A stretch of DNA of 64,000 nt from an uncultured Nitrosomonas sp. Lineage in GTDB: Bacteria; Pseudomonadota; Gammaproteobacteria; Burkholderiales; Nitrosomonadaceae. Below are positions 6,631-50,706 of this stretch, piece by piece. The notes beneath the pieces are model-generated. The model was not told the DNA's origin and made no database searches. It worked only from the letters and a program-made list of their open reading frames with translations. The stretch is taken from NCBI GenBank assembly GCA_902826115.1, contig CADEDO010000007.1, forward strand, positions 1 through 64,000, read 5' to 3'. How positions within the stretch are numbered: the first letter of the stretch is position 1; every line of letters begins with the position of its first letter. The position numbers and the translations under genes are program-made.

Positions 6631-9600
6631 ATGAGTACAAGATTGATTCCATCGCGCAGATACCCTGACAACATCGTTGTGCATCTACAGACACTGGCGC
6701 GTGAACGTCCGGCAGACACTGCGTTGATTGTTGTCAGTGCAGAAGGTGAAGCTTTTATCGACAGGAAATTTGCTTATGCGTCACTCGATCTGCAAGTCAA
6801 AGCACTGGCTGCGGTGATACAAAAAAAATATTTACCGGGAGAACGAGCGTTATTGCTTTTGAACAACGATGAACATTATGTCATTAGTTTTCTGGCGTGC
6901 CTGTATGCAGGAATAATTGCCGTGCCCATTTTTCCTCCGGAGTCTGTACGGGAAAAGCATTTGGCAAGATTAATTGCGATTGCCAATGATGCACAGGCCA
7001 GTTGTATCCTGACGACCAGCGAGTTTCTCCCACTGATCAGTAGTGCAGCTATCGCACAATTTGCTAAGGCTGACATTCTTGCCGTAGATACCATTGAACA
7101 GAGTAACGCATCACGATGGCATGCCCATACCCCGAAGGGGGATGAAATTGCTTTCCTCCAATATACCTCTGGATCCACCGCCACGCCCAAAGGTGTCATG
7201 GTCAGTCATCATAATCTGATGGTGAATGCCCGAGCGTTTGAAGAGGGTATGTCGATCAATGCCGACGACATTTTCGTGAGCTGGTTGCCGTTGTACCATG
7301 ATATGGGATTGATCGGAGGACTCTTGCAACCGATACATCGCGGCATTCCGGCAATACTGATGACCCCCCGATTTTTTATAGAAAGACCCATACGATGGCT
7401 CGAGGTCATTGCGTATTATCGCGCTACTGTCAGTGGTGCACCCAATTTTGCTTTCCAACTCTGTGTGGAGCGTGTGAGAAGTACGCAGTTACAAGGACTC
7501 GATTTGTCTAGCTGGCGTGTCGCTTTTTCTGGTGCTGAACCTGTACGCCGAGACACCATGCTTGCATTCATTGAGCGCTTCAAATCCACCGGTTTCTCGG
7601 CGGGCACTATTTATCCTTGTTATGGTTTGGCTGAAGCAACATTATTTGTCACCGGAGGGGTGCGCGGAGAAGGAGTAAGGGCGCATGAATTTTCTTCAGA
7701 ATTGCTTGCGCAAGGCAAAGCGGAAATGGTGGCACAGGGAATTCCGATAATTGCATGTGGTTTTCCTGCTTCGAATCATGCAGTTAAAATCTTTGATCCG
7801 GAAAAGCTGATGCCATTGCCGGATGGTCATGTTGGCGAAATATGGACGGATGGCCCCAGTTTGGCCTGTGGCTACTGGCAGCGTCCCCAGGAAACCGCAG
7901 AAAATTTTCTGGATCATGACGGTGGACGTTGGTTACGTACCGGTGATCTGGGTTTTATTCATGCACGGCAGTTGTACATTATGGGACGGCGCAAGGATCT
8001 CATCATCATCCGTGGACAAAATATTTATCCGCAGGATATTGAGCTGATCATCGAGGAAGAAGTCGAAGCCGTACGTAAAGGACGAGTGGCCGCATTTGCA
8101 GTTGAACATACAGAAGGTGAAAGCATCGGTGTCGCAGTCGAAGTGTCGCGTAGCATGCAAAAACTCATTCCCACTGAAACATTGGTAGAAGCGCTCAGTG
8201 AAGCAGTCAGTGCAAGTTGCCACGAATCCTTATCGGTGGTGGTATTGCTCAATCCGGGCGCGCTGCCCAAGACATCGAGTGGCAAACTGCAGCGTTCCGC
8301 GTGTCGCCAAGGATGGCGCGAACGTACACTGGATGCCTATGCTATCTACGAATACGGTCATTTCGTATTGGGTGGAAGCAGTCCGTCTTCCCAGGCGTTA
8401 TTGGATGAAACAGAAATCGCAGTAGCCACTGTCTGGAAAACGGTATTAGCTTGCACCGAATTGGGACGTGAAGATCATTTCTTTGCCATCGGTGGCAATT
8501 CACTGAAGGTTGCTCAGGTTGCGGCACGTATTTCCGATCAGTGGCACATTCCATTTACCCCACGCAGCTTGTTTCAGTATCCGCGCTTGCATGAATGCGC
8601 AGCGGAAATTAAACACTTATTGTCAGGGAACTCTTCTTCGCCAGTTACTGACAATCGCATATTGCCCTGCAACGATGAAATCAGCTCATTACCCCTATCC
8701 CACGGACAGCAGAGCCTTTGGTTTCTATGGCAACTTGATCCATTCAGTACCGCCTATCATGTGCAATATGCTGTGCGTTTATCAGGTGTGCTGGACAGAC
8801 CGGCATTTCAGGCGAGTTTTCAGGACTTGATCGAGCGGCACGAGTCCTTGCGCACAATTTTTCGTGTCAATGCAGCAGGTTCAGTCGAGCAAGTGATTCA
8901 ACCGGTATCGCCGCTGGCGATTACCGATATCGATTTGCTGGATTTGGCTGTTTCACAGCGCGAACAAAATGTCGCAGAGGAAGTGCGGAGCATGACTTCA
9001 TTGCCGTTTGATCTGACGAGGGATCCATTGCTGCGGGTTGCTTTGATCCGGGTAACGGAAAATGAAAATATTATGATCATCATCATGCACCATATCATTT
9101 CGGATGGTGTTTCGATGCAAATCCTGCTGAATGAATTTGCAGCATTCTATCAGGCGCATGTGCAAGGGAAGGCCGCTGACCTTGATCATCTGCCTATCCA
9201 ATACTCTGACTATACGTTCTGGCAGAAAAATTGGCTGGAAGCGGGTGAAAAAGACCGGCAGCTTATTTATTGGCAAAATTATTTAGGCAATGAACATCCG
9301 CTTTTAATGCTCCCGGTTGATCGTGCACGGCAGCTTGCCACCAGTTACCGAGCGGCACGTTATCGTTTTGATTTACCTCTGGATGTATTGGAAAAATTGC
9401 GTCAACTGACACTTGAGCGTGGGGCAACGCTGTTTATGGCATTGTTGACCGCGTTTCAGGTATTACTGTTTCGCCATACGGGGCAACAGGATATTCGCGT
9501 GGGTGTGCCGATCGCCAACCGCAATCGCATTGAAACGTCCGGTTTGATCGGTTTTTTCGTCAATACCCAGGTACTGCGTAGTCAATTGCATGGCCGTATG

Positions 9601-11928
9601 TCGCTTGCTGAACTTTTGCATCAAGTACGGGAAGATGCGCTGATTGCGCAATCTTTCCAAGATCTCCCATTCGAGCAGTTGGTCGAAGCACTGCACCCGC
9701 AAAGGGATTTGCGTCATAACCCGCTATTTCAGGTAACCATCAACCATCTGCAAAAAGATTACCGGATGCTTCAACAGCTTTCCGGATTGATAGTTACTGA
9801 TTACATCCTCCCGGAGCAGGCGGCGCAATTGGAATTCAGGCTCGAAACGGTCGAATTGCTCGATGGCAGCGTAAGCGCCAGTTTTATTTATGCGGCTGAT
9901 TTGTTTGAATCGGATGGGATTGAAAGATTGGCGCATCACTTTATCCGTATTCTACAAACATTGGCGGCGTACCCGCAAACAGCCATCAGTGAGATCGACC
10001 TATTAAGTGATAAAGACAAGGAGCAGCTCAAAATTTGGGGGAATCATGCGCCGTGTACTGCGATTAACCAACCGGTTCACCATCTCATAGAACAGCAAGC
10101 GAATAAATATCCGCAAATGACGGCGGTAATCTCGAATTGCATCGAATTGAGTTATGCGGAACTCAATTGCAGGGCGAATCGACTGGCACATCGCCTGATC
10201 AGTTTGGGTGTTAAGCCGGAAATACGCGTTGGTATTGCCATCGAGCGTGATTCTGTTGAATTGATAGTGGGTCTTCTGGCTATCTTGAAGGCGGGTGGCG
10301 GTTATGTCCCGCTGGATCCTGCCTATCCGATAGAACGCCTGAATCACATGATTGAAGACAGTGCCATTCAGTTTCTGCTGACACAAACACATATCAAACC
10401 AAGAATTCCGCATAGGGAAGGGATGGAATTACTGGAACTTGATGCGCTCGATCTTAGCAATGAGGTGCAGGAAAATCCTCGGATTGCATTGCACGGCGAG
10501 AATTTGGCGTATGTCATTTATACCTCAGGATCTACTGGTCGTCCCAAAGGGGTACCAGTTGCACATGGTCCTTTAGCGATGCATTTGACAGCGATCCAGG
10601 AAATTTACGACGTTCAACCCAGTGATCGGGAATTGATGTTTTTCTCAATGAATTTTGATGCAGCAGCAGAACAATGGATTACCCCTCTGACTCAGGGCGC
10701 CACGCTTGTGCTCTCTTCCACAAACGATTTGGCGGGCGAGGGTTTCGTAGAACTAATCGAAAAACATCGGATAACCATTCTGCATCTTCCCCCCGCTTAT
10801 TTGCGCATGCTGTTACCGCTGATAGAAGGCAAAGAACATGTCGTACGCACCTGTATCGCCGGCGGTGAAGCATGGTATACCTCCGATGTGATCGCTGCGC
10901 AGGCGATGTTCCAAGGTGTCAGGCTGGTAAACGCATATGGTCCGACTGAAACGGTGATAACACCGGCGGCATGGGTGAGTCATACGAGTGAAAAGACTGG
11001 AGCACAGGTCGGGGGCGATCATGCCCCGATTGGCCGCTCTATTGGCGCACGCAATCTGTATGTCCTGGATACAGAACTCAACCTTGCACCTGCGGGCACA
11101 ACCGGGGAACTCTATGTAGGCGGTGAAGGATTGGCGCGTGGTTATCATGATAGGCCAGCATTGACCAGTGAGCGCTTTGTTTCCGATCCTTTTAGTCAGA
11201 CCGGAGGCCGTCTCTACCGTACAGGTGACTTGGTTCGTTGGCGCGGCGATGGACAGCTTGAATATTTGGATCGTATCGATCATCAGATCAAGATTCGCGG
11301 TTTCCGCATTGAGTTGGGTGAAATCGAAGCCCAATTGCATGCCCAGGCGGAAGTGCGTGAAGCTGTCGTTGTCGCTCATGAAGGGTGCAGTGGGATACGT
11401 TTAGTCGCCTATGTGACGGCGCATCAGGGAATTCAGCTTAACCCGTTGCTATTAAAAACGGCATTAGGTAACACGCTACCCGATTATATGATCCCCGGCC
11501 TGTTCATTTTCCTGGATGTGTTGCCACTTAATCCCAACGGCAAAATAGACCGAAAAGCATTGCCTTCTCCCGAGCAGTTTGACAAATCGGATTATGAGCC
11601 ACCTGCTGATGCAACTGAAATGACTATTGCGGAAATATGGGCTGATATCTTAGGGATTCCTCAGGTTGGATTACATAACAATTTTTTTGATTTGGGCGGG
11701 CATTCGTTATTGCTGATCAAAGTCAAACACAGATTGGAAACGCATTTAAGTGTATCTATAGCCATTGTGGATCTTTTTAGATATACCACCGTTGCAAGCT
11801 TGGCGAAATATTTGAGTCAAGGGGACAACAACACGGGGCATGCATCTTTGCAGCGCCATCGGGATCGGGCGCAGCGGCAGCGTGGCGCGTTCATTCAACG
11901 AAAACAGAAAATAGAGAGGACGCATTGA
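6631..11928 (+). CDS. NRPS loading and first module: FAAL-PCP-C-A-PCP
   Basis: 1,765 aa. Residues about 10-575 are a fatty-acyl-AMP ligase (FAAL)-type adenylation domain: A3 motif YTSGSTATPKG near 178 and YGLAEATLF near 331, with a DMGLIGG segment typical of that family. A carrier domain follows (GGNS, Ser624). Next come a C domain (about 690-1110; HHIISDG, His820, His821, Asp825), an A domain (about 1140-1640; YTSGSTGRPKG at 1297-1307, FDAAAEQW at 1342-1349, NAYGPTE at 1434-1440) and a PCP (LGGHS, Ser1692). My alignment to GrsA gives the code D-A-E-H-I-G-A-I-T-K, whose substrate I do not know. The enzyme would load a fatty acid and join it to the first amino acid, as the PvdL start module does for pyoverdine. 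Its stop overlaps the PKS start (TGATG). Confidence 0.95.
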   Translation: MSTRLIPSRRYPDNIVVHLQTLARERPADTALIVVSAEGEAFIDRKFAYASLDLQVKALAAVIQKKYLPGERALLLLNNDEHYVISFLACLYAGIIAVPIFPPESVREKHLARLIAIANDAQASCILTTSEFLPLISSAAIAQFAKADILAVDTIEQSNASRWHAHTPKGDEIAFLQYTSGSTATPKGVMVSHHNLMVNARAFEEGMSINADDIFVSWLPLYHDMGLIGGLLQPIHRGIPAILMTPRFFIERPIRWLEVIAYYRATVSGAPNFAFQLCVERVRSTQLQGLDLSSWRVAFSGAEPVRRDTMLAFIERFKSTGFSAGTIYPCYGLAEATLFVTGGVRGEGVRAHEFSSELLAQGKAEMVAQGIPIIACGFPASNHAVKIFDPEKLMPLPDGHVGEIWTDGPSLACGYWQRPQETAENFLDHDGGRWLRTGDLGFIHARQLYIMGRRKDLIIIRGQNIYPQDIELIIEEEVEAVRKGRVAAFAVEHTEGESIGVAVEVSRSMQKLIPTETLVEALSEAVSASCHESLSVVVLLNPGALPKTSSGKLQRSACRQGWRERTLDAYAIYEYGHFVLGGSSPSSQALLDETEIAVATVWKTVLACTELGREDHFFAIGGNSLKVAQVAARISDQWHIPFTPRSLFQYPRLHECAAEIKHLLSGNSSSPVTDNRILPCNDEISSLPLSHGQQSLWFLWQLDPFSTAYHVQYAVRLSGVLDRPAFQASFQDLIERHESLRTIFRVNAAGSVEQVIQPVSPLAITDIDLLDLAVSQREQNVAEEVRSMTSLPFDLTRDPLLRVALIRVTENENIMIIIMHHIISDGVSMQILLNEFAAFYQAHVQGKAADLDHLPIQYSDYTFWQKNWLEAGEKDRQLIYWQNYLGNEHPLLMLPVDRARQLATSYRAARYRFDLPLDVLEKLRQLTLERGATLFMALLTAFQVLLFRHTGQQDIRVGVPIANRNRIETSGLIGFFVNTQVLRSQLHGRMSLAELLHQVREDALIAQSFQDLPFEQLVEALHPQRDLRHNPLFQVTINHLQKDYRMLQQLSGLIVTDYILPEQAAQLEFRLETVELLDGSVSASFIYAADLFESDGIERLAHHFIRILQTLAAYPQTAISEIDLLSDKDKEQLKIWGNHAPCTAINQPVHHLIEQQANKYPQMTAVISNCIELSYAELNCRANRLAHRLISLGVKPEIRVGIAIERDSVELIVGLLAILKAGGGYVPLDPAYPIERLNHMIEDSAIQFLLTQTHIKPRIPHREGMELLELDALDLSNEVQENPRIALHGENLAYVIYTSGSTGRPKGVPVAHGPLAMHLTAIQEIYDVQPSDRELMFFSMNFDAAAEQWITPLTQGATLVLSSTNDLAGEGFVELIEKHRITILHLPPAYLRMLLPLIEGKEHVVRTCIAGGEAWYTSDVIAAQAMFQGVRLVNAYGPTETVITPAAWVSHTSEKTGAQVGGDHAPIGRSIGARNLYVLDTELNLAPAGTTGELYVGGEGLARGYHDRPALTSERFVSDPFSQTGGRLYRTGDLVRWRGDGQLEYLDRIDHQIKIRGFRIELGEIEAQLHAQAEVREAVVVAHEGCSGIRLVAYVTAHQGIQLNPLLLKTALGNTLPDYMIPGLFIFLDVLPLNPNGKIDRKALPSPEQFDKSDYEPPADATEMTIAEIWADILGIPQVGLHNNFFDLGGHSLLLIKVKHRLETHLSVSIAIVDLFRYTTVASLAKYLSQGDNNTGHASLQRHRDRAQRQRGAFIQRKQKIERTH

Positions 11929-14900
11929 TGAATAGCTCTGAAAAATTAACGCAAAACGTAGAAATTGATATTGCGATCATTGGTATGGCATGCCGTTTCC
12001 CGGGCGCGAACGATGTCAATGCGTTTTGGCATAATCTACGGGAAGGCGTTGAGTCAATCACGTTCTTTAGCGATGAGGAATTGCTCGAACTTGGTGTATC
12101 TGCCGAGGTGTTGAATGATCCCCATTACATTAAAGCAGGCGCTCATTTAAGCGATGTCGATTGCTTCGATGCGTCTTTTTTTGGATATACGCCTCGGGAA
12201 GCAGCAGAAACAGATCCGCAACATCGATTGTTTCTGGAGGTGGCATGGCAAGCCTTGGAAGATGCCGGTTACGATACTTCGCGGTACGCCGATCCGGTCG
12301 GCGTATACGCTGGATGTGGCGTGAATACTTATCTGATGCTGAACTTGCTATCCAGCGGGCGTATGGCGGATAAACACGATATTTCTTCGTTGCAAGGGCT
12401 AATGAATGGTAACAATAAAGATTCGATGACCACCACGGTCGCATATAAGCTTAATTTACGCGGCCCCGGAATTACAGTACAGACAGCCTGTTCCACTTCT
12501 CTTGCGGCCACTCATGTTGCTTGCCGCGGACTGCTCAATCATGAGGCCGATATGGCTATTGCAGGGGGCGTCTGGGTAAATCTGTTACATGAGGGTGGAT
12601 ATCATTATCAGCCTGGCGCAATCCTCTCACCGGATGGTCATTGCCGTGCTTTTGATGCAAAAGCAGCAGGAACGGTCATCGGTAGTGGGGTGGGTGTCGT
12701 AGTATTGAAACGACTGGCCGATGCGCTGGCGGATGGCGATACCATTCACGCGGTGATTAAAGGTTCTGCGATCAATAATGATGGCTCCGCTAAAATCGGT
12801 TATACCGCTCCCAGTGTGGAAGGGCAAGCAGAAGTGATACTGGCCGCTCAGTCGATTGCCGGTATTTCCGCAGACACGATCAGTTATATTGAAACACATG
12901 GCACCGGTACCACCATCGGTGATCCGATAGAAATTGCGGCATTAACGCAGGCTTTCCGGGAAAGCACCGACAAACGGGGATTTTGTGGCGTTGGTTCGGT
13001 CAAGACCAATGTAGGGCATTTGGATGCAGCAGCAGGAGTGGCGGGGTTGATCAAGGCAACACTTTCACTCAAGCACCAGATTTTGCCGCCCAGTTTGAAT
13101 TTTGAGCAACCCAATGCACAAATCGATTTTTCCTCGAGCCCTTTCTACGTGAATACGGTGGGTAAGGTCTGGGAGAGTGGTGCGACGCCACGCCGTGCCG
13201 GTGTCAGTTCGTTTGGCATCGGTGGAACCAATGTACACATGATTGTTGAAGAAGCTCCACCAATCCTCCCATCCGGTCCCTCACGCGAATGGCAGATACT
13301 CATGGTTTCAGCACGCAGTCGGGATGCGCTGGAAAATGCGGTGGTGCGTTTGCAGAATCATATCGTTGCGCATCCAGAACAGCCATTGGCTGATGTCGCC
13401 TATACGCTGCAGACCGGGAGAAAGCATTTTTCGCATCGGACGATTGCGCTATGCCGTGATCATGATGATGCTGGGATGTTGTTAAAGAACCGGGATGGCG
13501 ATCGTTTTCTGATGCAAAAAGTAGCCGTTGAAAATCGCTCTGTCACCTTCCTGTTTCCCGGCCAGGGCGCACAATATGTCGATATGGCGCGCGATCTTTA
13601 TCAGTATGAGCCAGTATTTCGTGAAGAATTCGATCGTTGCCTGCGACTATTAAAATCCCACCTTGATTTTGATTTATTCAAACTGATATACCCGGACGCA
13701 AACGAGGAGGCGCGGATTTCCGCTTCAGCACGGCTGGAGCAGACCGAAGCTACACAACCCGCGCTGTTCGTTATTGAATATGCCTTGGCTCAGCTATGGA
13801 TGTCATGGGGAATTCAACCTGCATCGATGATCGGACATAGTGTGGGGGAATACGTGGCTGCCTGCCTGGCAGGGGTATTTTCCCTGGAAGATGCCTTGTG
13901 GCTGGTTGCTATGCGAGGGCGTCTGTTACAACAAATGGAAACAGGCGCCATGCTGGCTGTTATGCTGCCTGAAACAGAACTTGCGCCTTATGTGATCGAA
14001 GGGTGTGATTTGGCAGCGGTTAACGGACCAGCACTGTGCGTGTTATCTGCGCCAACCGCAGTGATGGAAATTGTGGAAAAGAATCTGACCGAAAATGGCA
14101 TTGCAAGCCGGCACTTGCATGTTTCACATGCATTTCATTCCAGCATGGTGGATTCCATATTGCCTGTTTTTGTCGAGATGGTTACCAAGATTAGGTTGCG
14201 TCCACCCAAAATTCCATTTTTCTCTAATCTGAGTGGGGATTGGATTACACCTCAGGAAGCAATGGATGGCGGTTATTGGGGGCGGCATTTACGTGGAACA
14301 GTACGTTTTAACGATGGTTTGCAAAAATTGCTGGTTGATCAGGCACAGATTTTATTGGAAGTCGGGCCTGGAGAAACATTGATAACGCTGGCGCAACGCC
14401 ATCCTTTGGCAAAACCTGAGCAACTCATGCTGTCGTCGTTACCTCATCCCAGTAAAGGCCATGTAGCCCAGAAGCACTTATATCTTAATTTGGGCAAGCT
14501 TTGGTTGAATGGTGTGATGATTGACTGGCAAGCATTCTATGCGCATGAACGCCGACATCGTGTTTCATTGCCGACGTATCCGTTCGAGCGTCAATCTTAC
14601 TGGATTAAACCCGGCGAATCGAATGCACAAGCTGCTTCTAAGCCAGGCAGTCATTCGGCTGCGGGGTCAAAAGAAGCAGAAAATGTTCTTGTACATTCAA
14701 GCAATGATTGGCTTTATGTACCTTCATGGCGGCGGGCCGATGAAATTAATTCTGACAGCTTTGTTCCTGAAACAGCCAGTACTTATTTAATTTTCAGCGA
14801 TGAGCATGCGCTCAGCACCGCTTTGATTGAGTGTTTGTTGTGTTTGGGCGTCAATCCCGTTGTGGTTTCTGCTGGTACAACATTCCAACGTAAGAGTAGG

Positions 14901-16526
14901 CATAGCTATATCCTTTGTCCTAGGGAACAACAGGACTTCGACTTGTTGTTTCAGAGTATCCGCGAGGAAGGTAAAACGCTGGGTCAAATCTTTCATCTTT
15001 GGAGTTTAAGTGAAGAAAACACAGTGAGATCTGAAGCAGAAAGCCTGACCAGGAATTTCTACAGCCTGCTTAATCTGGCAAAGTCTCTGGAAAATTCCAA
15101 GACGCTTATTCCGTCTGGTAAGCAGGTAGGTATTACCATTGTAACCAATCAATTGGCTGATGTTACCGGTGTGGAAACGTTGTGTTCAGAGAAGGCGTTT
15201 CTGTTGGGGCCATGCAAAGTCATTCCACAGGAATACTCAAATCTGGATTGCCGCATCATCGATATTGAATTACAGCCGTCGGATGAGGCTATGCAGGCCC
15301 GGCTGGCAAAACAAATTCTCACTGAGTTACGAACAGATACCGGTACTTCTATTGTGGCCTACCGCGGGCCCTATCGCTGGACTCCATTTTTTAAACCGGC
15401 ACAACCTCCTTCAGTTGTAAAAAACCGTCTCAAGTCAGGAGGCGTTTATTTGATTACCGGCGGACTCGGCGGCATCGGCTTAGCGGTGGCGGAATATTTG
15501 GCTCGGACCCAGCAAGCAAAATTGGTGCTTCTAGGCCGTTCCATTATTCCCGCGCGTGAACAATGGCAAGAAATTTTATCTGCACTCGGCAAAGAAGATT
15601 CACTGCGGCGCAAAATAAAAAATATCATGCAGCTGGAAAAATTGGGTGCCAAGGTACTGATAGTGAATGCTGATGTTGCAAACCTGACTGAATTAAAGAT
15701 CGTTGTTACTAAGGCACGGCGATTGTTCGGTGCTATTGATGGGGTGATTCATGCGGCAGGCGAGGTTAGCAGCGGACTAATGTCAACCAAGACAGAAGAG
15801 ATGATTGCGCGGGTATTTGCACCTAAAGTGCAAGGAATGCAGGCATTGCAAGCGGTATTCAAGGATGATCCTATTGATTTCATGTTGTTATGCTCATCAC
15901 TGGCTACGATTGCAGGCGGTCTTAGCAAGGTGGATTACTGCGCGGCTAACGCTTATCTGGATGCAGCGGCTCATGTTGCTTATCGTAAATCCGCCTATCC
16001 GGTTATTTCAATCAATTGGGATAGCTGGCGGGAAGTTGGCATGGCTGCAGGCATGGAGATGCCGGAAGGCGTCGGGATTTCTCCCAGAGAAGGCGCGAAG
16101 GTATTCGAGCAGATTGTGAATGGTCCGAATATCCCGCAAATTATTGTTTCAACAGTTGATCTGTCGGCACGATTGCGTCAGACCCAGCACGATCTGATTG
16201 CACAACCGTTTACTTTTACCCTGACAGCCAAGACAGGAAGATTCCCAAGACCGGCATTGCCAACGGTATTTAAATCCCCAGAAAGTGATCTGGAAACAGG
16301 TATTGCGGAAATTTGGCAGAGTCTGCTGGGAATAGAAGCTATCGGCGTGGATGATAATTTATTCGAATTGGGTGGCGACTCATTGTTAGGAATACAGTTG
16401 TTATCCAGAGTGAGAACAAGTTTTTCCGTTGATTTGCATCCGGCGGATTTCTTCAGATCGCCTACCATCACAAGATTGGCCGCATTGGTCGAGACAAAAT
16501 TGCTCAATGAAATTGAATGTTCATAA
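11928..16526 (+). CDS. Type I polyketide synthase module KS-AT-KR-ACP
   Basis: 1,532 aa from the ATG at 11928, which shares its A with the preceding TGA and has AGAGG upstream. The KS (about 12-435) has Cys188 in TACSTS, His324 in ETHGTGT and His364 in NVGHL. The AT (about 545-840) has Ser638 in GHSVGEY; its HAFH motif at 734-737 points to malonyl-CoA. The KR (about 1160-1340) has TGGLGGIG at 1177-1184, Tyr1337 and Asn1341. The ACP has Ser1485 in LGGDS. No DH, ER or methyltransferase motif is seen, so the product is a beta-hydroxy unit. Placed after an amino-acid module, it should extend that residue by two carbons to a statine-like gamma-amino-beta-hydroxy acid (inference). Confidence 0.95.
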   Translation: MNSSEKLTQNVEIDIAIIGMACRFPGANDVNAFWHNLREGVESITFFSDEELLELGVSAEVLNDPHYIKAGAHLSDVDCFDASFFGYTPREAAETDPQHRLFLEVAWQALEDAGYDTSRYADPVGVYAGCGVNTYLMLNLLSSGRMADKHDISSLQGLMNGNNKDSMTTTVAYKLNLRGPGITVQTACSTSLAATHVACRGLLNHEADMAIAGGVWVNLLHEGGYHYQPGAILSPDGHCRAFDAKAAGTVIGSGVGVVVLKRLADALADGDTIHAVIKGSAINNDGSAKIGYTAPSVEGQAEVILAAQSIAGISADTISYIETHGTGTTIGDPIEIAALTQAFRESTDKRGFCGVGSVKTNVGHLDAAAGVAGLIKATLSLKHQILPPSLNFEQPNAQIDFSSSPFYVNTVGKVWESGATPRRAGVSSFGIGGTNVHMIVEEAPPILPSGPSREWQILMVSARSRDALENAVVRLQNHIVAHPEQPLADVAYTLQTGRKHFSHRTIALCRDHDDAGMLLKNRDGDRFLMQKVAVENRSVTFLFPGQGAQYVDMARDLYQYEPVFREEFDRCLRLLKSHLDFDLFKLIYPDANEEARISASARLEQTEATQPALFVIEYALAQLWMSWGIQPASMIGHSVGEYVAACLAGVFSLEDALWLVAMRGRLLQQMETGAMLAVMLPETELAPYVIEGCDLAAVNGPALCVLSAPTAVMEIVEKNLTENGIASRHLHVSHAFHSSMVDSILPVFVEMVTKIRLRPPKIPFFSNLSGDWITPQEAMDGGYWGRHLRGTVRFNDGLQKLLVDQAQILLEVGPGETLITLAQRHPLAKPEQLMLSSLPHPSKGHVAQKHLYLNLGKLWLNGVMIDWQAFYAHERRHRVSLPTYPFERQSYWIKPGESNAQAASKPGSHSAAGSKEAENVLVHSSNDWLYVPSWRRADEINSDSFVPETASTYLIFSDEHALSTALIECLLCLGVNPVVVSAGTTFQRKSRHSYILCPREQQDFDLLFQSIREEGKTLGQIFHLWSLSEENTVRSEAESLTRNFYSLLNLAKSLENSKTLIPSGKQVGITIVTNQLADVTGVETLCSEKAFLLGPCKVIPQEYSNLDCRIIDIELQPSDEAMQARLAKQILTELRTDTGTSIVAYRGPYRWTPFFKPAQPPSVVKNRLKSGGVYLITGGLGGIGLAVAEYLARTQQAKLVLLGRSIIPAREQWQEILSALGKEDSLRRKIKNIMQLEKLGAKVLIVNADVANLTELKIVVTKARRLFGAIDGVIHAAGEVSSGLMSTKTEEMIARVFAPKVQGMQALQAVFKDDPIDFMLLCSSLATIAGGLSKVDYCAANAYLDAAAHVAYRKSAYPVISINWDSWREVGMAAGMEMPEGVGISPREGAKVFEQIVNGPNIPQIIVSTVDLSARLRQTQHDLIAQPFTFTLTAKTGRFPRPALPTVFKSPESDLETGIAEIWQSLLGIEAIGVDDNLFELGGDSLLGIQLLSRVRTSFSVDLHPADFFRSPTITRLAALVETKLLNEIECS

Positions 16527-16603
16527 TGTGATTGGCTTGACTTGAGAAATGTGAGTGCCCCGTAACAAGGTATCCCACCGAGGAATAAATCAGAGATTTT
16601 TTT

Positions 16604-19600
16604 ATGGCAGATAATGACGATCTTGCGCGACGACGAGCGCGCCTGACGCCGGAACAGCGTCAACGATTAACGCAGCGACTCCGGGCAAGCGGTGATTCAT
16701 TAAGACAAGCAACTACCACCATTCCACGCCGACCGGACGGTGAATTCGCAAATCTTTCCTATGCGCAGCAGCGGCACTGGTTTTTATGGCAATTGGATCC
16801 GCAGAGCACGGCATATCATCTGGGCGGCGCGCTGTGTTTGCTTGGGGAACTGGATATTGAAGCTTTGCAGGCAAGTTTCCAGGGGCTGATAACACGGCAT
16901 GAATCGTTGCGCACGGTTTTTCAGGTGGATGAAATAGGATTGCCGCAGCAGAAGATCGATGTGCAAGGGAAATTCGAACTGATTCGGATCGATTTGAGCG
17001 ATTTGCCGGTTGCGCAAAGTCGTCAGCGTGCGCATGAAGAAGCGCTACGGATCAACGTCACGCCGTTCGATCTGACGCAAGGGCCGCTACTGCGTGTGGC
17101 ACTCATCCGGGTGGCTGCGGAAGAACACCATTTGGTGGTAGTGATGCACCATATCATCTCGGACGCCTGGTCCAATCGTATCATTATCGATGAATTCGCT
17201 GCACGCTACCGTGCTCAGGTGGAAGGATTGGAATTTTCGCTGCCGCCGCTGGCGATTCAGTATGCAGATTATGCGCTATGGCAGCGCAACTGGCTGGAAG
17301 CGGGAGAAAAAGAGCGGCAGTTAACCTATTGGCGCAGTCAACTGGGAGAAATGCATCCGGTATTGCAATTGCCTACCGATCACCCGCGCACATCGACAGC
17401 AAATTACCGGGCGGCAAAGCATGATTTTGTGTTGCCAATTGCACTCGCGGCCCGCCTGCAGCGTCAGGCACAGGGTCGGGGAACAACGCTGTTTATGGCA
17501 TTGCTGACTGGTTTTCAGGCATTGTTATATCGCTATACCGGGCAAAGCGATCTGCGCGTGGGCGTACCGATTGCCAACCGTCATCGTGTCGAGATAGAGA
17601 ATATTGTCGGTCTGTTCGTGAATACCCAGGTACTGTGCAACCGCATCGACAGCCGCATGCCGCTGAGCAAGCTACTCGAACGAACCCGTGAGGCCGCGCT
17701 GGGTGCGCAGACGTACCAGGATCTACCGTTTGAGCAACTGGTGGAAGCGCTACAGCCGGAACGCAGTCTGCATCAGAATCCGCTGTTTCAGGTCATGTTT
17801 AATCACCTGCGCGAGGACTATCGCGCACTGGGGCAATTGCCCGGACTGACCGTTGAAGAATATGAACTCGGCGAGCGCGGTGCGCAGTTTGAATTGACGC
17901 TGGATACCGTGGAGAGACCGAACGGACGAATTGACGCACGTTTCACCTACGCCGCCGAATTGTTTGGGGCGGACACGATCAAGCGGTTGAGCGAACATTA
18001 TCTCAGGGTACTGGAACAACTGGCTGAAAGCCCGGAGCGATGTTTGGGCGACATCACGCTCTTAAGCGCAGCGGAATGGCAACAGCTAAAAGATTGGGGG
18101 GTTAACGGACGGCGCTATGCCAATACGGAACCGGTGCACCGCTTGATCGAGCGGCAGGTCAATGATTGTTCTGATGCAACTGCGCTTATTTTTGGCGATA
18201 CGGAGCTTAGTTACGCGCAACTGAATAGCCGGGCGAACCGGCTGGCACATCAACTGATTGCTTTGGGAGTGAAACCCGAGAGTCGGGTAGGGATTGCGGT
18301 GGAACGCTCGGTCGACATGGTGGTTGGGCTGCTGGCGACGCTCAAGGCAGGCGGTGCATACGTGCCGCTGGATCCGGCATATCCGCGGGAGCGGCTGAAT
18401 CACATGGTGACAGACAGCGCGATTGAACTATTGCTGACACAAAGTCATGTCAGAGAGCGGATTCCCCTTGCGGAAGGGTGCCATGTTGTGGAACTGGACA
18501 TGCTGGATTTAACGGACTGGCCGGACAATAATCCGGCAGTGAACCTGCACGGGGAACATCTGGCTTACATCATCTATACCTCCGGCTCCACCGGAAAACC
18601 TAAGGGCGCCGTTAACCGTCACGGTGCGCTGTATAACCGGCTGGTTTGGATGCAGGAAGCCTATTCCCTGGATCATGGCGATACTGTGTTGCAGAAAACA
18701 CCGTTCAGCTTTGATGTGTCAGTTTGGGAATTTTTCTGGCCATTAATGTACGGAGCGCGCCTGGCTATCGCTAATCCGGGTGATCACCGTGATGCCGCGC
18801 GGTTAATTGCACTCATTCAGCAGCACAAAGTAACGACGCTGCATTTTGTTCCGGCCATGTTACGGGCTTTTATGGCAGAAAGCGGTGTTGCAGCCTGCAG
18901 CAGCTTGAAACAAATTGTCTGTAGCGGGGAAGTGCTGCCATTGGAAATGCAAGAAGCCGTTTTCAGGCAACTCCCTAATGTCAAACTTTACAATCTCTAT
19001 GGACCGACGGAAGCGGCCATCGACGTAACCCATTGGACTTGCCGCGATGAAGCATCCAGTAATATTCCGATCGGGCAACCGATAGTCGCTACCCAAACCT
19101 ATATTCTGGATACCGATCTTAACCCGGTGCCACAAGGCGTGGCAGGGGAATTGTATCTTGGCGGCGCTGGACTTGCTCGCGGTTATCTGAATCGGCCTGG
19201 TCTGACAGCGGAGCGGTTCGTGGCGAGCTCGTTTGATGGGAATGGAGCGCGGCTCTACCGCACGGGGGATTGGGCGAGATGGCGATCGGACGGGCAGATT
19301 GAATATTTAGGACGGCTTGATCATCAGGTCAAGGTAAGAGGTTTCCGCATCGAATTGGGTGAGATCGAAACACAGCTATTGTTACAGCCGGGAATCAGAG
19401 AAGCAGTGGTGATGGTGAAAGAAGGATCCAGCGGCGCAAGACTTGTTGCCTATGTGTCGTGTCATGCGAAAAATGAGGTGGATACGGTCGAATTGTGCGG
19501 AGTATTGGGAAAATCCTTGCCCAGTTACATGATTCCATCGGCGATCATCGTGCTGAAGAGCCTGCCGTTGAATGCGAATGGCAAGGTGGATCGCAAACTG

Positions 19601-31840: not shown

Positions 31841-31924
31841 AATAACCGATTCATCAAGGGTATTGATTTCGTCGGGGAGTTTCAGCGCTGATCGATCAAT
31901 AATCAAATGGCGCGTGCATACAAT

Positions 31925-33187: not shown

Positions 33188-33191
33188 CACT

Positions 33192-34862: not shown

Positions 34863-34893
34863 GGTTTATCCATTTGACAGAGATATATCTAGT

Positions 34894-34918
34894 GACGAAT
34901 GGTGAAAGAAAATGTTTA
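34894..34918 (-). promoter_or_regulatory. PvdS/OrbS-type promoter for the ABC-PepSY operon
   Basis: On the minus strand TAAA (34918-34915) is followed after exactly 17 bp by CGTC (34897-34894), the element described for OrbS/PvdS-type sigma factors. The ATG of the ABC gene lies about 30 bp downstream of the -10. Short elements can occur by chance, but a second identical-spacing copy faces the other way in the same intergenic region. Confidence 0.7.
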
Positions 34919-35078
34919 CTCTGCAGTGGCGTATCTAAGGTGTTTCTCAGTAGATAAACAATCTATCCCCAAAGATTTTATTACCGGCTGTTCGGCACGA
35001 TTTGCCAATAGCACGGCCATTTTCTCATTCCAATTAAGCATTTTGCAGATAGTCAATATTCTCTGAGAAATAAAATTA

Positions 35079-35103
35079 TAAATAATAATACTTCTCATTC
35101 GTC
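35079..35103 (+). promoter_or_regulatory. PvdS/OrbS-type promoter for the tailoring/uptake operon
   Basis: TAAA at 35079-35082 (with a following T) and CGTC at 35100-35103 are 17 bp apart, fitting the iron-starvation sigma consensus. The start codon of the N-acyltransferase is 50 bp further on. A Fur box occupies nearly the whole spacer. The cognate sigma factor is presumably the one at 4157. Confidence 0.75.
35081..35099. promoter_or_regulatory. Fur box overlapping the divergent promoter region
   Basis: Read on the minus strand, AATGAGAAGTATTATTATT matches 16 of 19 positions of AATGAGAATNATTCTCATT. It lies between the -35 and -10 of the plus-strand PvdS/OrbS-type promoter, so Fur binding would block it directly, adding to indirect control through the sigma factor. 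Confidence 0.6.
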
Positions 35104-35153
35104 TTCAAGAAATAGATGACGTAATTACTGAAATTAATTTCTCTTGGAAAAGA

Positions 35154-36260: not shown

Positions 36261-36270
36261 GGATTACTTC

Positions 36271-37572: not shown

Positions 37573-37637
37573 TGTGATAAATCGCGGTTTTGAGGGATTA
37601 ATTCCAAATTAACAATAGAATATACAAACACTTAATC

Positions 37638-39917: not shown

Positions 39918-39968
39918 GCAAAGATAAACTGCATTGATCATTGCAATTGCACTATTGGAGGACACTTG

Positions 39969-40934
39969 ATGTTACTTGATCCTGATCTGGCGGCTTTTCT
40001 TGAGCTGGTCGAAGCAAATATCATGAGCGGGGAAAAACCGGAGATGCATACGCTGACACCTGAGAAAGCACGCAACGAATATGAAGCTTCAACGCAAATT
40101 CTCGATGTACCTGGAGTGCCGGTAGGCAGCGTTACTCATATCAGTATTCCATGCCGCGATGGTCAATCGATCGCTGCGCGCTTATATAAGCCGACTGAAT
40201 CCAGTGAAACGATGGATTCTCTGCCAGTACTGCTCTATTTCCATGGCGGAGGATATTGTATTGGGAGTCTTGATTCTCATGATTCATTGTGTCGATCATT
40301 GACAACCTTGACACCTTGCTGCGTGTTGAATGTGGCCTACCGGCTAGCGCCTGAATATCAATTTCCAACCGCTGTCTATGATGCGCAAGATGCCTATCGT
40401 TGGTTACTGTCCACAGGATCGGAATATGGTCTGGATGTGGGGCGGGTCGCGGTTGGAGGGGATAGTGCCGGCGGTACGTTGGCTACGGGCTTGACTATTG
40501 CCGCACAGCAGGAAAATTGGCCGCAACCGGTGTGCCAGATATTACTCTATCCTTGTACCAGCGTCTGGCAGAATACCGAATCGCATCATCGTTTTGCACA
40601 AGGTTATTTACTCGAAGCGAAAACGCTTCAGTGGATGTTTGCAAATTACCTGCGTACCGATGCCGATCGAACGGATTGGCGTTTTGCGCCACTGCAAGCG
40701 AGCGACTTGCGTAATCTTGCGCCGACCTTCTTGGTGTTGGCTGAGTATGATCCTTTGCTTGATGAAGGAATCGCGTATGCAGAAAAGCTTAAAACCGCCG
40801 GTATTTCCACGCGAATCAAAATTTATTCCGGAATGACACACGATTTTGCTCGCCTCGGGAACATTGTCAGCGAAGCCGAGCAAGTGCGTAACGACATAGC
40901 CGGCGAGCTTGCTAATGCATTTTGTCCAAAATAG
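39969..40934 (+). CDS. Alpha/beta hydrolase, hormone-sensitive-lipase family
   Basis: 321 aa from ATG 39969, with GGAGG seven bases upstream; a TTG at 39966 is also in frame. It has the HSL oxyanion motif HGGGY near residue 93, the nucleophile Ser166 in GDSAGG, and downstream Asp and His (EYDPLLDEG; MTHDF). Such enzymes hydrolyse short esters. Its place right after the receptor suggests a task in siderophore breakdown or maturation, such as cleaving an ester of a TE-cyclised product, but this is a guess. It is not of the Fes or IroE family. Confidence 0.85.
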   Translation: MLLDPDLAAFLELVEANIMSGEKPEMHTLTPEKARNEYEASTQILDVPGVPVGSVTHISIPCRDGQSIAARLYKPTESSETMDSLPVLLYFHGGGYCIGSLDSHDSLCRSLTTLTPCCVLNVAYRLAPEYQFPTAVYDAQDAYRWLLSTGSEYGLDVGRVAVGGDSAGGTLATGLTIAAQQENWPQPVCQILLYPCTSVWQNTESHHRFAQGYLLEAKTLQWMFANYLRTDADRTDWRFAPLQASDLRNLAPTFLVLAEYDPLLDEGIAYAEKLKTAGISTRIKIYSGMTHDFARLGNIVSEAEQVRNDIAGELANAFCPK

Positions 40935-41011
40935 ATTGAGTAACTCGTACCTGTATCTTCAGACTTCATTGATGATCAAATGCCCTGCCAAATGGGATTG
41001 GATGGATCTCA

Positions 41012-42379: not shown

Positions 42380-42427
42380 TGAGGCGACTGCAGTGACTAT
42401 AAACCGGAATTTGATTATTACCCATTT

Positions 42428-46725: not shown

Positions 46726-46778
46726 TAAATTGATCAGTAGATTTTCCAGTTGAAATCTCTCGTTTATTGGAAGGAAAA

Positions 46779-48398: not shown

Positions 48399-48516
48399 AC
48401 GATTCATGGCGAAACGGCATTGGTTCTTCGCTTCATACGCCACTCAGTATTTTTATCAAGCTTGTTTGAATCTCATCAACCAGTAAACAACTCGTTTCAC
48501 AATCAAGGAAATTAAC

Positions 48517-50706
48517 GTGAAAATTCGCTCCGTGTTGCGTTCATTCTTGTGCATACTATTATCCACAACTCTATTCCTGAGTGCGTGCCAGCAATCTATC
48601 CGATCGTTAGCACAAAATCATAATGGTGCGGAAATTTTGTGGGATACCTGGGGCGTTCCGCATATTGTGGCCCGGAAAGATAGCGACGCCTTCTATGCCT
48701 TTGGTTGGGCGCAGATGAGAAGTCATGCCGATTTGTTGCTCAAACTCTATGCCGTGGCACGTGGGCGCGGTGCTGAAATTTTTGGTGAAAGTTATCTGCC
48801 CGCTGACCGGTCCGTGCGGATGCTGGGTATTCCAAGCCTGGCTGAGCAATGGTATGCGAAACAAGACGTTGCCTTCCGTGCCAATCTGGATGCATTTGCC
48901 GCCGGCATCAATGATTTCGCGCGCCGACATCCAGAGAACATTTCTGATGCGGTTAAAGCGGTATTGCCGGTGACGCCGCAGGATGTGATTGCGCATACCA
49001 CGCGGGTAATGACCGTTTTTATTGCTGGCACTTCCGAGTGCGGTGCGGTATTGCCGGGTTTTGATTTTATTGGCCAGCCGGTTGCCTCGAATGGTTGGGC
49101 GCTAGGCCCCGGTTATTCAACCAGCGGTAACGCTATGTTACTGACTAATCCGCATCTGGATTGGCATGGATTAGAAACATTCTACGAATCACATTTCCTG
49201 CTGCCGGATGTGAATCTCTATGGCACGGCATTGGTGGGTTCTCCTGTTTTGCAGATCGCTTTTAACGATCATTTGGGCTGGACGCATACCGTCAACACCA
49301 TGGATGGTTGCGACCTCTATCAACTGAAGCTGGCGGGATCCTCATTGAACGATGGTTATATATTGGATGGCGTCGCACAATCTTTCATCACTATTACCGA
49401 AACTATTCAAATCCGTCAGCAGGACGGCAGCATGACAAGCGAATCTTTGCGCATTCATCGAGCTAAACAAGGGCCAGTGATTGAAACGGGCGATCAAATT
49501 TTAGCGGTACGTTTTGCTTTATTGGAAACATCATTATTGGCTGATATGAACCGGCAATGGTGGGAAATGGGGCATGCCAGCAACCTGAAAGAATTTCAAA
49601 ATGTGCTGCAAGGCCAGCATCTTCCGCTATTCAACGTTATTTATGCGGATGTGGATAAGCATATTATGCTTGCTTTTAATGGCATTATCCCAGTACGGGA
49701 CGTGGGGGATGCAGCTTTCTGGCGTGCGCATGTTAGCGGGGATGATTCGAGCTTGATCTGGACAAAAGCACACGCCTACGCGGACCTGCCCAAATCGATT
49801 GATCCTCCCGGCGGTTGGGTACAAAATTCAAATGGCGCACCTTGGTATATGACGATGCCTTTTCTCGATAAAAACCAGTATCCGCCTAACATCGCGGCGG
49901 ATGTGATCAATAATCGTGAGTTGCGTGGATTGCAGATGCTGAATGAACATAAACAAATGAGCTATGCTGAATTGATTGCTGCCAAGCATTCGACACGTGC
50001 TTTAGTTGCCGATCAATTGCTTGATGAATTGGTCGCTGCTGCACGCGCGAATCATGATCCGTTGCTGCGACAGGCTGCCGATGTGTTAAATCGCTGGGAT
50101 CGACAATATTTAGCAGAAAGTAAAGGCGGATGGCTTTTCGGCATCTGGTTCGAGAAATGGTTGGAAAGAACAATTACCAAAGCCACGGATGCTGATCCCA
50201 ATTACGACTTTACCTTTAGTCAGCTTGTCGGGGATCTTTTTTATGCACAACCTTTTGATTCGACTCAACCACTGACTACACCGCGCGGCTTGGCTGACGT
50301 GCCGTTGGCGATACTGGCCCTGCATGATGCTGCCAGTGAATTGCAAGCGACTATTGGCGCACTCGATATAGCTTGGGGTGATATTGCTCGTTTGCGTCGC
50401 GGTAAGATTGATTTGCCCGGCAATGGTGCCGGTACTGAACTAGGCGTTTTCCGCGAAATTATTTACCAACCAGATGAAGATGGTAAATTTCAGTCGTCTT
50501 CCGGCGATACGTATATTGCACTGGTTGAATTCTCACGACCTGTTCGCGCTCAGGTATTAACAACCTACGGTAACGCTACCCAGAACAATACTTTTGGAAT
50601 AGGCGATCAGCTGCATCTGGCAGCCAAACAACAGCTTCGATCTGCTTGGCGTACGTTGGAAGAGATCGAAACGAATTTGGCGTTACGTGAGAATTTGACA
50701 TATTGA
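48517..50706 (+). CDS. PvdQ-like N-terminal-nucleophile acylase, predicted lipoprotein
   Basis: 729 aa from GTG 48517, with AGGAA upstream. The penicillin-acylase family layout is clear: an alpha-chain segment, a linker, then VASNGWALGPG where Ser191 becomes the N-terminal nucleophile after self-cleavage. Beta-chain marks include HLDWHGLETFYESH and GWTHTVNTMD. PvdQ removes the fatty-acid tail of the pyoverdine precursor in the periplasm, and the FAAL start of the NRPS here predicts such a tail. Unlike PvdQ it carries a lipobox (LSAC, Cys24), so it should be membrane-anchored; sorting to inner or outer membrane is not decided. Quorum-signal or antibiotic acylase activity is the alternative. 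Confidence 0.88.
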   Translation: MKIRSVLRSFLCILLSTTLFLSACQQSIRSLAQNHNGAEILWDTWGVPHIVARKDSDAFYAFGWAQMRSHADLLLKLYAVARGRGAEIFGESYLPADRSVRMLGIPSLAEQWYAKQDVAFRANLDAFAAGINDFARRHPENISDAVKAVLPVTPQDVIAHTTRVMTVFIAGTSECGAVLPGFDFIGQPVASNGWALGPGYSTSGNAMLLTNPHLDWHGLETFYESHFLLPDVNLYGTALVGSPVLQIAFNDHLGWTHTVNTMDGCDLYQLKLAGSSLNDGYILDGVAQSFITITETIQIRQQDGSMTSESLRIHRAKQGPVIETGDQILAVRFALLETSLLADMNRQWWEMGHASNLKEFQNVLQGQHLPLFNVIYADVDKHIMLAFNGIIPVRDVGDAAFWRAHVSGDDSSLIWTKAHAYADLPKSIDPPGGWVQNSNGAPWYMTMPFLDKNQYPPNIAADVINNRELRGLQMLNEHKQMSYAELIAAKHSTRALVADQLLDELVAAARANHDPLLRQAADVLNRWDRQYLAESKGGWLFGIWFEKWLERTITKATDADPNYDFTFSQLVGDLFYAQPFDSTQPLTTPRGLADVPLAILALHDAASELQATIGALDIAWGDIARLRRGKIDLPGNGAGTELGVFREIIYQPDEDGKFQSSSGDTYIALVEFSRPVRAQVLTTYGNATQNNTFGIGDQLHLAAKQQLRSAWRTLEEIETNLALRENLTY

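What the first reader, a model, noticed from the sequence alone, without database searches (positions are those of the whole stretch)
6631..50706. Acylate-then-deacylate siderophore pathway without pyoverdine chromophore genes
A FAAL-started NRPS (6631), a PvdE-like exporter (33192), an N-hydroxylase/N-acyltransferase pair (35154-37572) and a PvdQ-like acylase (48517) sit together under iron-type control signals. In pyoverdine these parts load a fatty acid, export the acyl-peptide and strip the tail in the periplasm. Here the periplasmic chromophore-maturation genes (pvdN/O/P type) and chromophore-forming Tyr/Dab modules are not visible, and a PKS unit is inserted. This would be a hydroxamate siderophore that uses the pyoverdine maturation logic for a different molecule. 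Whether the tail is removed or kept (an amphiphilic siderophore) is open.
Basis: partly seen in the sequence, partly recalled or inferred. Interest (0 to 1): 0.85.

Follow-up and report, generated by a model that had tools for sequence, protein, structure and literature searches.

The report
Tail-trimming siderophore genes in Nitrosomonas
An ammonia-oxidising bacterium carries genes that appear to build an iron-scavenging peptide on a fatty-acid handle, cut the handle off outside the inner membrane and possibly reload it for reuse; close relatives have lost the cutter, so they can test what the fatty tail is for.

Summary
The observed parts are real. The window lies in a Nitrosomonas genome and holds a complete-looking hydroxamate-siderophore cluster: ECF sigma factor, MbtH, FAAL-started NRPS, PKS, two further NRPSs, TIGR01194 exporter, N-acyltransferase, ornithine hydroxylase, TonB receptor, RND pump and an Ntn acylase. 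The core is not unique: related clusters occur in Nitrosospira, Cupriavidus, Variovorax, Delftia and Massilia, and the PKS step is usual (9 of 11 mapped).

(1) The acylase is not PvdQ: it is sister to cephalosporin acylases, so at least two, probably three, acylase lineages serve acyl-siderophore clusters. (2) Its neighbour is 50% identical to a solved acyl-ACP synthetase, a fitting enzyme to reload a released fatty acid. The two are adjacent in 18 of 20 acylase-bearing Nitrosomonas genomes. (3) The acylase is optional. Seven of seven Nitrosospira/Nitrosovibrio genomes carry the FAAL NRPS without a cluster acylase; seven cluster-bearing Nitrosomonas lack it, and in N. communis Nm44 both genes are frameshifted.

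The tail is probably removed here and kept in those relatives. Trimming, tail reuse and the product are inferred, not shown. New variant of a known kind.

The parts
4157..4681 (+). ECF sigma factor; iron-starvation role (FecI/PvdS type) inferred from its place
   Evidence: Pfam Sigma70_r2/r4_2; sigma70-ECF superfamily model 71 bits, cut-off 42.9; FecI equivalog not reached (65 vs 260)
4877..5092 (+). MbtH-like NRPS partner
   Evidence: PF03621 81.8 bits
5105..5842 (+). type II thioesterase
   Evidence: PF00975
5808..6527 (+). 4'-phosphopantetheinyl transferase
   Evidence: PF01648/PF22624
6631..11928 (+). FAAL-ACP-C-A-PCP; loads the fatty acid and acylates residue 1 (code DAEHIGAITK)
11925..16526 (+). 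PKS KS-AT-KR-ACP, malonyl-type AT (HAFH motif; meaning recalled)
16604..19933 (+). NRPS C-A-PCP, Ser-type code DVWHVSLIDK
19934..31840 (+). NRPS C-A-PCP-E-C-A-PCP-C-A-PCP-TE; codes DGECTGGITK, DADDNGAVTK, DGEAVGGVTK
   Evidence: E domain told from C by motif and place, recalled
31925..33190 (-). PepSY-TM inner-membrane protein, candidate ferric-siderophore reductase (FpvG-like by recall)
   Evidence: PF03929 194 bits
33192..34862 (-). peptide exporter (PvdE/SyrD type), cytoplasm to periplasm
   Evidence: TIGR01194 433 bits, cut-off 286
34894..34918 (-). ECF-sigma promoter-like site TAAA-N17-CGTC, exporter side
   Evidence: 26 of 28 regions
35079..35103 (+). ECF-sigma promoter-like site TAAA-N17-CGTC, acyltransferase side
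   Evidence: 27 of 28 regions
35154..36260 (+). N5-hydroxyornithine acyltransferase (IucB/SidF-type GNAT)
   Evidence: PF13523 198 bits; SidF 171 bits
36271..37572 (+). L-ornithine N5-monooxygenase (PvdA type)
   Evidence: PF13434 415 bits; PvdA 3s5w 437 bits
37638..39917 (+). TonB-dependent ferric-siderophore receptor
   Evidence: TIGR01783 313 bits, cut-off 223.5
39966..40934 (+). alpha/beta-hydrolase esterase, part of the core block in many relatives
   Evidence: PF07859
41012..42379 (+). outer-membrane factor of tripartite pump
   Evidence: PF02321
42428..43618 (+). HlyD-family adaptor
   Evidence: PF13437
43615..46725 (+). RND pump, candidate periplasm-to-outside exporter
   Evidence: PF00873 460 bits
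46767..48398 (+). acyl-ACP synthetase (AasS)-like ligase, proposed to reload the released fatty acid
   Evidence: 597 bits and 50% identity to PDB 8hsy acyl-ACP synthetase; a CoA-ligase subfamily model also passes; adjacent to the acylase in 18 of 20 acylase genomes
48517..50706 (+). Ntn-hydrolase acylase, predicted lipoprotein (LSAC), proposed to cut off the fatty tail
   Evidence: PF01804 373 bits; cephalosporin acylase 462 bits, PvdQ 163 bits; tree; residues

Best explanation
This is an iron-controlled NRPS/PKS hydroxamate-siderophore cluster with a tail-trimming cassette. The FAAL loads a fatty acid, the first module puts it on residue 1, a malonyl PKS step extends that residue, and four more residues are added and released by the terminal thioesterase. 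Two or three of the residues are probably N5-acyl-N5-hydroxyornithine. The exporter moves the acyl-peptide to the periplasm. There the lipoprotein acylase cuts the fatty amide, the RND pump sends the product out, the TonB receptor brings the ferric form back and the PepSY protein may reduce it. The freed fatty acid is probably taken up by the neighbouring AasS-like ligase and returned to ACP. In relatives without a working acylase the same machinery should yield a tail-bearing, amphiphilic siderophore. Shown from sequence: gene content, order, conservation, acylase lineage, joint presence and loss. Inferred: substrates of acylase and ligase, product structure, transport directions, timing.
For: Domain content. 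The acylase is tied to the siderophore: of 85 Nitrosomonas genomes it is found (E 1e-40) in 20, all among the 28 with the cluster hydroxylase. It is found in two places in the siderophore locus: at the end of the acyltransferase...RND arm (window, G068, G058, G029, G061, G073, G053) or behind exporter-PepSY (G060, G059, G054, G010), on the same strand as, and downstream of, one or the other arm of the divergent ECF-type promoter region; co-transcription is inferred. In 12 sampled Nitrosomonas acylases the catalytic Ser1b and Asn244b are kept in 12 of 12, while Tyr33b and Arg57b of cephalosporin acylase (glutaryl binding, recalled) are F/I/L and Q in 12 of 12 and kept in 4 of 4 of the cephalosporin clade. 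All 12 have a lipobox-like cysteine (6 by eye; see full report). The ligase is 50% identical to an acyl-ACP synthetase and tends to go with the acylase: both frameshifted in G077 (N. communis Nm44), both absent at the locus in G007, G031, G075 and G032, neither found in G051 or G078.
Against: No chemistry is known for this cluster. Changed pocket residues do not prove a fatty substrate. The acylase is not found in 7 cluster-bearing Nitrosomonas of 92% completeness or more, so it is not essential to the pathway. Two sister genomes (G027, G057) have the acylase without the ligase; a 26-codon ligase remnant is seen in G057. G025 has a ligase beside a frameshifted acylase. G041, G046, G033 and G064 have a 78-81% identical ligase without the siderophore cluster, in G041 next to Fe-ADH, MFS, SelO and FMO genes, so the ligase has another job there. 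In G028 the pair lies about 850 kb from the exporter in the assembly with no pump or exporter gene matched around it. The ligase also passes a CoA-ligase model.
Confidence: 0.62

Rival explanations
1. The siderophore is secreted with its tail. The acylase acts on the returning ferric siderophore, freeing a membrane-bound amphiphile into the periplasm so that iron can be taken off, and the ligase recovers the fatty acid.
For: The acylase is a predicted lipoprotein. Tail-bearing siderophores are reported in Cupriavidus and Herbaspirillum, and Variovorax and Azotobacter (crochelins) are named in the same list (PMC12904278 passages). TonB receptor and acylase lie on the same strand in the window.
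Against: Pyoverdine precedent is removal before secretion (PMC9569983 passages). The RND pump and acylase are near neighbours in the window arrangement.
Confidence: 0.2
2. The acylase has nothing to do with the siderophore: it quenches acyl-homoserine lactones or detoxifies other acyl amides, and is only a neighbour.
For: Ntn acylases are best known as AHL and beta-lactam acylases (abstract starts). The closest solved relative is a cephalosporin acylase. Four distant relatives (33-40%) in other families show no match to this cluster's other proteins within about 9 kb.
Against: 0 of 57 Nitrosomonas genomes without the cluster hydroxylase have it, against 20 of 28 with it (genomes are related, so not independent). 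Two different placements within the siderophore locus. Presumed glutaryl-binding residues are changed.
Confidence: 0.12
3. The acylase is inactive or a relic, and Nitrosomonas siderophores keep their tails.
For: Several absences and frameshifts.
Against: Catalytic residues kept in 12 of 12 sampled; 66-91% identity over most of the protein across the genus.
Confidence: 0.06

Closest known systems
Pyoverdine maturation (PvdL FAAL, PvdE, PvdQ) in Pseudomonas
   Same: Fatty-acid start, PvdE-type exporter, PvdA-type hydroxylase, Ntn acylase, ECF sigma gene
   Different: No chromophore modules; PKS step; acylase of another lineage (24-26% identical to PvdQ-clade proteins); AasS-like ligase beside the acylase
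Betaproteobacterial lipopeptide siderophores (cupriachelin, taiwachelin, variochelin, serobactin from PMC12904278 passages; delftibactin recalled)
   Same: FAAL-NRPS-PKS-NRPS order and the acyltransferase-hydroxylase-TonB core shared with Variovorax, Delftia and Cupriavidus genomes; that these very clusters make those compounds was not tested
   Different: No Asp-type code in the window's modules and no beta-hydroxylase domain found there; acylase from a different clade than the one in Cupriavidus/Variovorax/Massilia siderophore loci
Crochelins of Azotobacter chroococcum
   Same: Non-pyoverdine siderophore cited in connection with acylase maturation (PMC10587159 passages); PKS-derived moiety (recalled)
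   Different: Paper not held, so not compared directly. PMC12904278 lists crochelins together with lipopeptide siderophores. The acylase in an Azomonas locus (L135) falls with PvdQ
Glutaryl-7-ACA / cephalosporin acylases
   Same: Nearest solved relatives of the window acylase: 462 bits, 37% identity
   Different: Tyr33b and Arg57b not kept
Acyl-ACP synthetase of PDB 8hsy
   Same: 50% identity over the full length
   Different: Here beside an acylase in a siderophore locus; activity untested

Membership tests
PvdQ acylase | reaches the NCBIfam PvdQ equivalog cut-off | tested here: not met
   190.1 bits vs 950
PvdQ acylase | branches with Pseudomonas PvdQ | tested here: not met
   12 Nitrosomonas rows form a 100* clade, joined (95*) by the cephalosporin acylase clade; L132, L144, L135 lie elsewhere (quick method, long branches present)
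PvdQ acylase | Ntn nucleophile and oxyanion Asn | tested here: met
   S1b and N244b in 12 of 12 sampled
Pyoverdine pathway | Glu-Tyr-Dab chromophore modules | tested here: not met
   five codes, none Tyr- or Dab-like (code meanings recalled)
Pyoverdine pathway | PvdP tyrosinase | tested here: inconclusive
   no PF00264 match in own genome, but no control genome rang either
Pyoverdine pathway | PvdN and PvdO | not tested
   no such Pfam family among the window proteins scanned; the rest of the genome was not searched for them
Cyclic-peptide exporter TIGR01194 (PvdE/SyrD) | score over curated cut-off | tested here: met
   433 vs 286 bits
FAAL-started PKS/NRPS lipopeptide siderophore family of Betaproteobacteria | FAAL-C-A followed by KS-AT-KR and further NRPS | tested here: met
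   same order in 9 of 11 relatives' FAAL regions mapped, not in Aquabacterium L230 or Halomonas L231; also in Nitrosomonas relatives
FAAL-started PKS/NRPS lipopeptide siderophore family of Betaproteobacteria | product keeps a fatty tail | not testable with these tools
   needs chemistry; the cluster acylase argues against it here
Cephalosporin/glutaryl acylase | glutaryl-binding Tyr33b and Arg57b (roles recalled) | tested here: not met
   F/I/L and Q in 12 of 12 sampled; kept in 4 of 4 of the cephalosporin clade
Acyl-ACP synthetase (AasS) | full-length similarity to a solved member | tested here: met
   597 bits, 50% identity over 537 aligned columns
Acyl-ACP synthetase (AasS) | transfers acyl to ACP and not to CoA | not testable with these tools
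   PRK06187 long-chain fatty-acid-CoA ligase model also passes (572 vs 476 bits)

The most novel reading that the evidence does not exclude
Nitrosomonas runs a closed fatty-acid loop for siderophore making. Each peptide is built on a borrowed acyl chain, a lipoprotein acylase recruited from the cephalosporin-acylase lineage cuts it off, and a co-located acyl-ACP synthetase reloads it for the next round. The acylase-synthetase pair is an optional cassette that switches the same kind of molecule between membrane-bound and freely diffusing forms, and it has been lost several times within one genus.
Probability: 0.35. Interest if true: 0.68.

Novelty: new variant of a known kind. Interest (0 to 1): 0.5.

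Why it matters
Ammonia oxidisers need much iron, yet a 2022 review says that siderophore production by them had not been investigated in vitro, that N. europaea lacks a biosynthesis system, and that N. eutropha has an aerobactin pathway in its genome (PMC9693385, passages). The NRPS cluster described here is in 28 of 85 Nitrosomonas genomes by its hydroxylase. The presence/absence pattern of the acylase gives a natural comparison for an old question: why build siderophores on a fatty handle, and when to cut it. Isolates on both sides exist: N. nitrosa Nm90 and N. supralitoralis APG5 with uninterrupted acylase and ligase frames, N. communis Nm44 with both frameshifted. The acyl-ACP synthetase partner suggests a tail-salvage step that is not in the pyoverdine passages I read.

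Tried and rejected
Pyoverdine proper: rejected on adenylation codes. PvdQ orthology: rejected. The second Ntn acylase of the genome, on contig C15: no phmmer match to the window acylase, so left out of the tree; acylases of similar PF01804 score are the only ones in 7 of 7 Nitrosospira/Nitrosovibrio, so I did not take it as the siderophore acylase. This rests on lineage and place, not on a test of activity. Chance repeats of the promoter pattern: window-wide not enriched, so only placement and conservation are used. Fur box: none. Meaning of codes DAEHIGAITK, DGEDHGTVTK and DADDNGAVTK: two papers looked into (passages) gave no table; left open. Whole-genome test for PvdP: uninformative. Literature: ten searches in open PMC papers only; the three that name Nitrosomonas and the one for a recalled name (29) listed no title on a Nitrosomonas NRPS siderophore, which does not show there is none.

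Rows left out: the tree had 48 rows, of which 12 were a chosen part of the Nitrosomonas acylases; L001 (no match), L092, L093 and L109 were not in it. One search left out 10 distant rows of those 48. One search used 35 exporter rows; G025, G028, G050, G079, L070 and L074 among others were not in it; G077 was scored acylase-minus because it is frameshifted, and G086 from its own contig only, not from a genome-wide search. One search was given 32 loci; 4 lacked one of the two genes. I first wrote that three acylase lineages serve siderophores; the tree fully separates the Nitrosomonas lineage from the rest, while the PvdQ and betaproteobacterial groups share one 100* group with other acylases between them, so 'at least two, probably three' is what it bears.


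Full report
What is there. The window is the start of a 77-kb contig of a 3.09-Mb genome. Five genomes that the tools place in the same genus have contigs whose lengths equal those of named Nitrosomonas records (40,163; 188,828; 57,430; 141,280; 83,095 bases), so the genus is Nitrosomonas. From 4157 to 50706 runs one siderophore region: ECF sigma factor, MbtH, type II thioesterase, PPTase, FAAL-ACP-C-A-PCP, PKS, NRPS, a long NRPS with an epimerisation domain and terminal thioesterase, PepSY protein, exporter, N-acyltransferase, ornithine hydroxylase, TonB receptor, esterase, outer-membrane factor, adaptor, RND pump, an AMP-forming ligase and an Ntn acylase.

How common it is. In 85 genomes of the genus the hydroxylase occurs at 64% identity or more in 28 (two further genomes have matches at 32-33%), the PKS at 62% or more in 24. 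The exporter at 76% or more occurs in 27 Nitrosomonas among 149 relatives searched, plus one other genus of the family and one partial copy. The acyltransferase-hydroxylase-TonB block with an exporter nearby is shared widely among them, though single genes are missing in many loci. The order FAAL-NRPS-PKS-NRPS is seen in 9 of 11 relatives' FAAL regions mapped (Variovorax L227, Delftia L228, Cupriavidus L229, Nitrosovibrio L232, Nitrosospira L233 and L241, Thauera L239, Massilia L240, Deefgea L242), but not in Aquabacterium L230 or Halomonas L231. So the PKS unit is the family habit, not an oddity.

Control. Between exporter and acyltransferase two divergent sites TAAA-N17-CGTC begin 56 and 76 bases before the two gene starts. 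Of 28 regions with both genes, the window's own included, the acyltransferase-side site is kept in 27 and the exporter-side site in 26; many of these genomes are close kin. The acyltransferase-side site is also found in the 11 Halomonas/Vreelandella regions printed. This is the form recalled for PvdS/OrbS-type iron sigma factors. Window-wide the looser pattern is no more frequent than chance, and no canonical Fur box was found.

The product. Codes at modules 1 to 5 are DAEHIGAITK, DVWHVSLIDK, DGECTGGITK, DADDNGAVTK and DGEAVGGVTK. Across the other Nitrosomonas NRPS pieces I held, the codes at modules 1, 3 and 5 are kept (one I-to-V change at module 1; some letters unread), while module 2 is Ser-like, Gly-like, DGEDHGTVTK or DADDNGAVTK, and module 4 is DGEDHGTVTK or DADDNGVVTK (Ser and Gly meanings recalled). 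The terminal code is identical to one in the Delftia locus, where delftibactin is recalled to end in hydroxyornithine. My inference is that the conserved positions 1, 3 and 5 carry the iron ligands (N5-hydroxyornithines, one of them PKS-extended) and 2 and 4 are spacers. No Asp-type code and no beta-hydroxylase family was seen in the window.

The acylase. It has 462 bits to cephalosporin acylase and 163 to PvdQ in the PDB, and 37% identity to the former versus 24-26% to three PvdQ-clade proteins. The acylases of two Pseudomonas and one Azomonas siderophore loci form another group, and 16 from siderophore loci of Cupriavidus, Variovorax, Massilia and others a further one (100*). These last two lie together in a larger 100* group with acylases between them (quick method, with warnings on long branches). 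So at least two, probably three, lineages serve acyl-siderophore clusters. Among 397 other Pseudomonadota genomes only 4 have a match at E 1e-60 or better, 33-40% identical. The catalytic Ser and Asn are kept in 12 of 12, the cephalosporin Tyr33b and Arg57b in none (numbering by my count along the alignment, roles recalled). A lipobox-like cysteine is in all 12: the motif scan printed it for 6 (LSAC or LVAC), picked an unrelated cysteine in one (LGAC by eye) and printed nothing for 5, where I read LNAC or LQAC by eye, which are looser forms.

The partner. The ligase next to it is 50% identical to a solved acyl-acyl carrier protein synthetase, though a CoA-ligase model also passes. It lies beside the acylase in 18 of 20 acylase genomes, the broken pair of G077 included. 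In the two exceptions, close sisters G027 and G057, no ligase was found; in G057 a 26-codon remnant lies between pump and acylase. At E 1e-130 it is absent from 7 of 7 Nitrosospira/Nitrosovibrio and present in 7 of 26 named genomes, three of them Nitrosomonas. A 78-81% identical copy without other cluster genes around it stands in G041, G046, G028, G031 and G064; in G041 its neighbours are Fe-ADH, MFS, SelO and FMO genes.

An optional step. All 20 acylase genomes are among the 28 cluster genomes. Eight cluster genomes have no acylase match: G007, G031, G032, G051, G069, G075, G078 and the 66%-complete G079. In G007, G031 and G075 both possible sites were read and are empty; in G032 the contig ends about 6 kb past the pump; in G069 and G078 contig ends limit the view; in G051 the stretch beyond the hydroxylase where TonB to pump are expected matched none of the cluster's proteins. 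G077 (N. communis Nm44) has both ligase and acylase frameshifted. G069 has a frameshifted ligase. G025 has a frameshifted acylase beside an uninterrupted ligase, plus an uninterrupted acylase at the edge of a 3.6-kb contig. Nitrosospira and Nitrosovibrio: 7 of 7 carry the FAAL NRPS at 62-68% identity and a single Ntn acylase of the housekeeping type by score; none was found in the stretches around their hydroxylase. Two of two Halomonas have the FAAL NRPS and no Ntn acylase match, which fits the recalled amphiphilic siderophores of that genus. On an exporter tree of 35 rows acylase presence needs 7 changes, 5 forced by well-supported branches, and none of the 8 Nitrosospira-type rows has it. 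One gain at the base of Nitrosomonas with several losses is the simplest story. The tree cannot tell gain from loss by itself, and draft genomes can hide genes.

Mechanism. Most likely: acyl-peptide made in the cytosol, exported, trimmed in the periplasm by the lipoprotein acylase, secreted by the RND pump, reimported by the TonB receptor; fatty acid reloaded by the AasS-like ligase. Gene content and linkage are shown; trimming, timing (before secretion or after uptake) and salvage are inferred.

Against what is known. Acylase-dependent maturation exists for pyoverdine (PMC9569983 passages). PMC10587159 (passages) cites the crochelin paper on acylases and shows deacylation of glidonins by an acylase encoded about 1 Mb from the cluster. 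Lipopeptide siderophores that keep tails are known from Cupriavidus and Herbaspirillum, and variochelins and crochelins are named in the same list (PMC12904278 passages). What is new here, as far as I could search, is the combination: an acylase lineage apart from PvdQ, an acyl-ACP synthetase-like partner, and repeated absence or decay of the pair within one genus of ammonia oxidisers. I rate it a new variant of a known kind.

Noticed in passing
window 16763-18585 and 20090-21912: A perfect 1,823-bp repeat joins the second and third NRPS genes, covering the C domain and the start of the A domain. Recent gene conversion or duplication, or an assembly artefact.
   Followed up: partly
NRPS modules 2 and 4 in Nitrosomonas relatives (L058, L059, L249-L258): Codes at the two presumed spacer positions vary between species, and G007 (L258) carries at module 2 the code that the window has at module 4, which looks like module or A-domain shuffling.
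   Followed up: partly
L212, L243, L244: Frameshifted genes at the end of the siderophore locus: ligase in G069, ligase and acylase in N. communis Nm44, acylase in G025.
   Followed up: yes
L209:6109-8160 and L210:4757-6802: A second, distant TonB receptor match (27% identical) sits between exporter and acyltransferase in G075 and G032, both without an acylase match.
   Followed up: no
L234, L235, L236, L237, L238: A stand-alone copy of the AasS-like ligase without other cluster genes around it; in L234 its neighbours are Fe-ADH, MFS, SelO and FMO genes.
   Followed up: partly
window 53621-63663: Run of glycosyltransferases with an RgpF-type rhamnan protein and a PIG-L deacetylase right behind the siderophore region.
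   Followed up: no
window 51095-53081: Acyltransferase-3 and fatty-acid-hydroxylase family genes on the minus strand just behind the acylase; no hits to them in the 20 loci mapped, so not treated as part of the cluster.
   Followed up: partly
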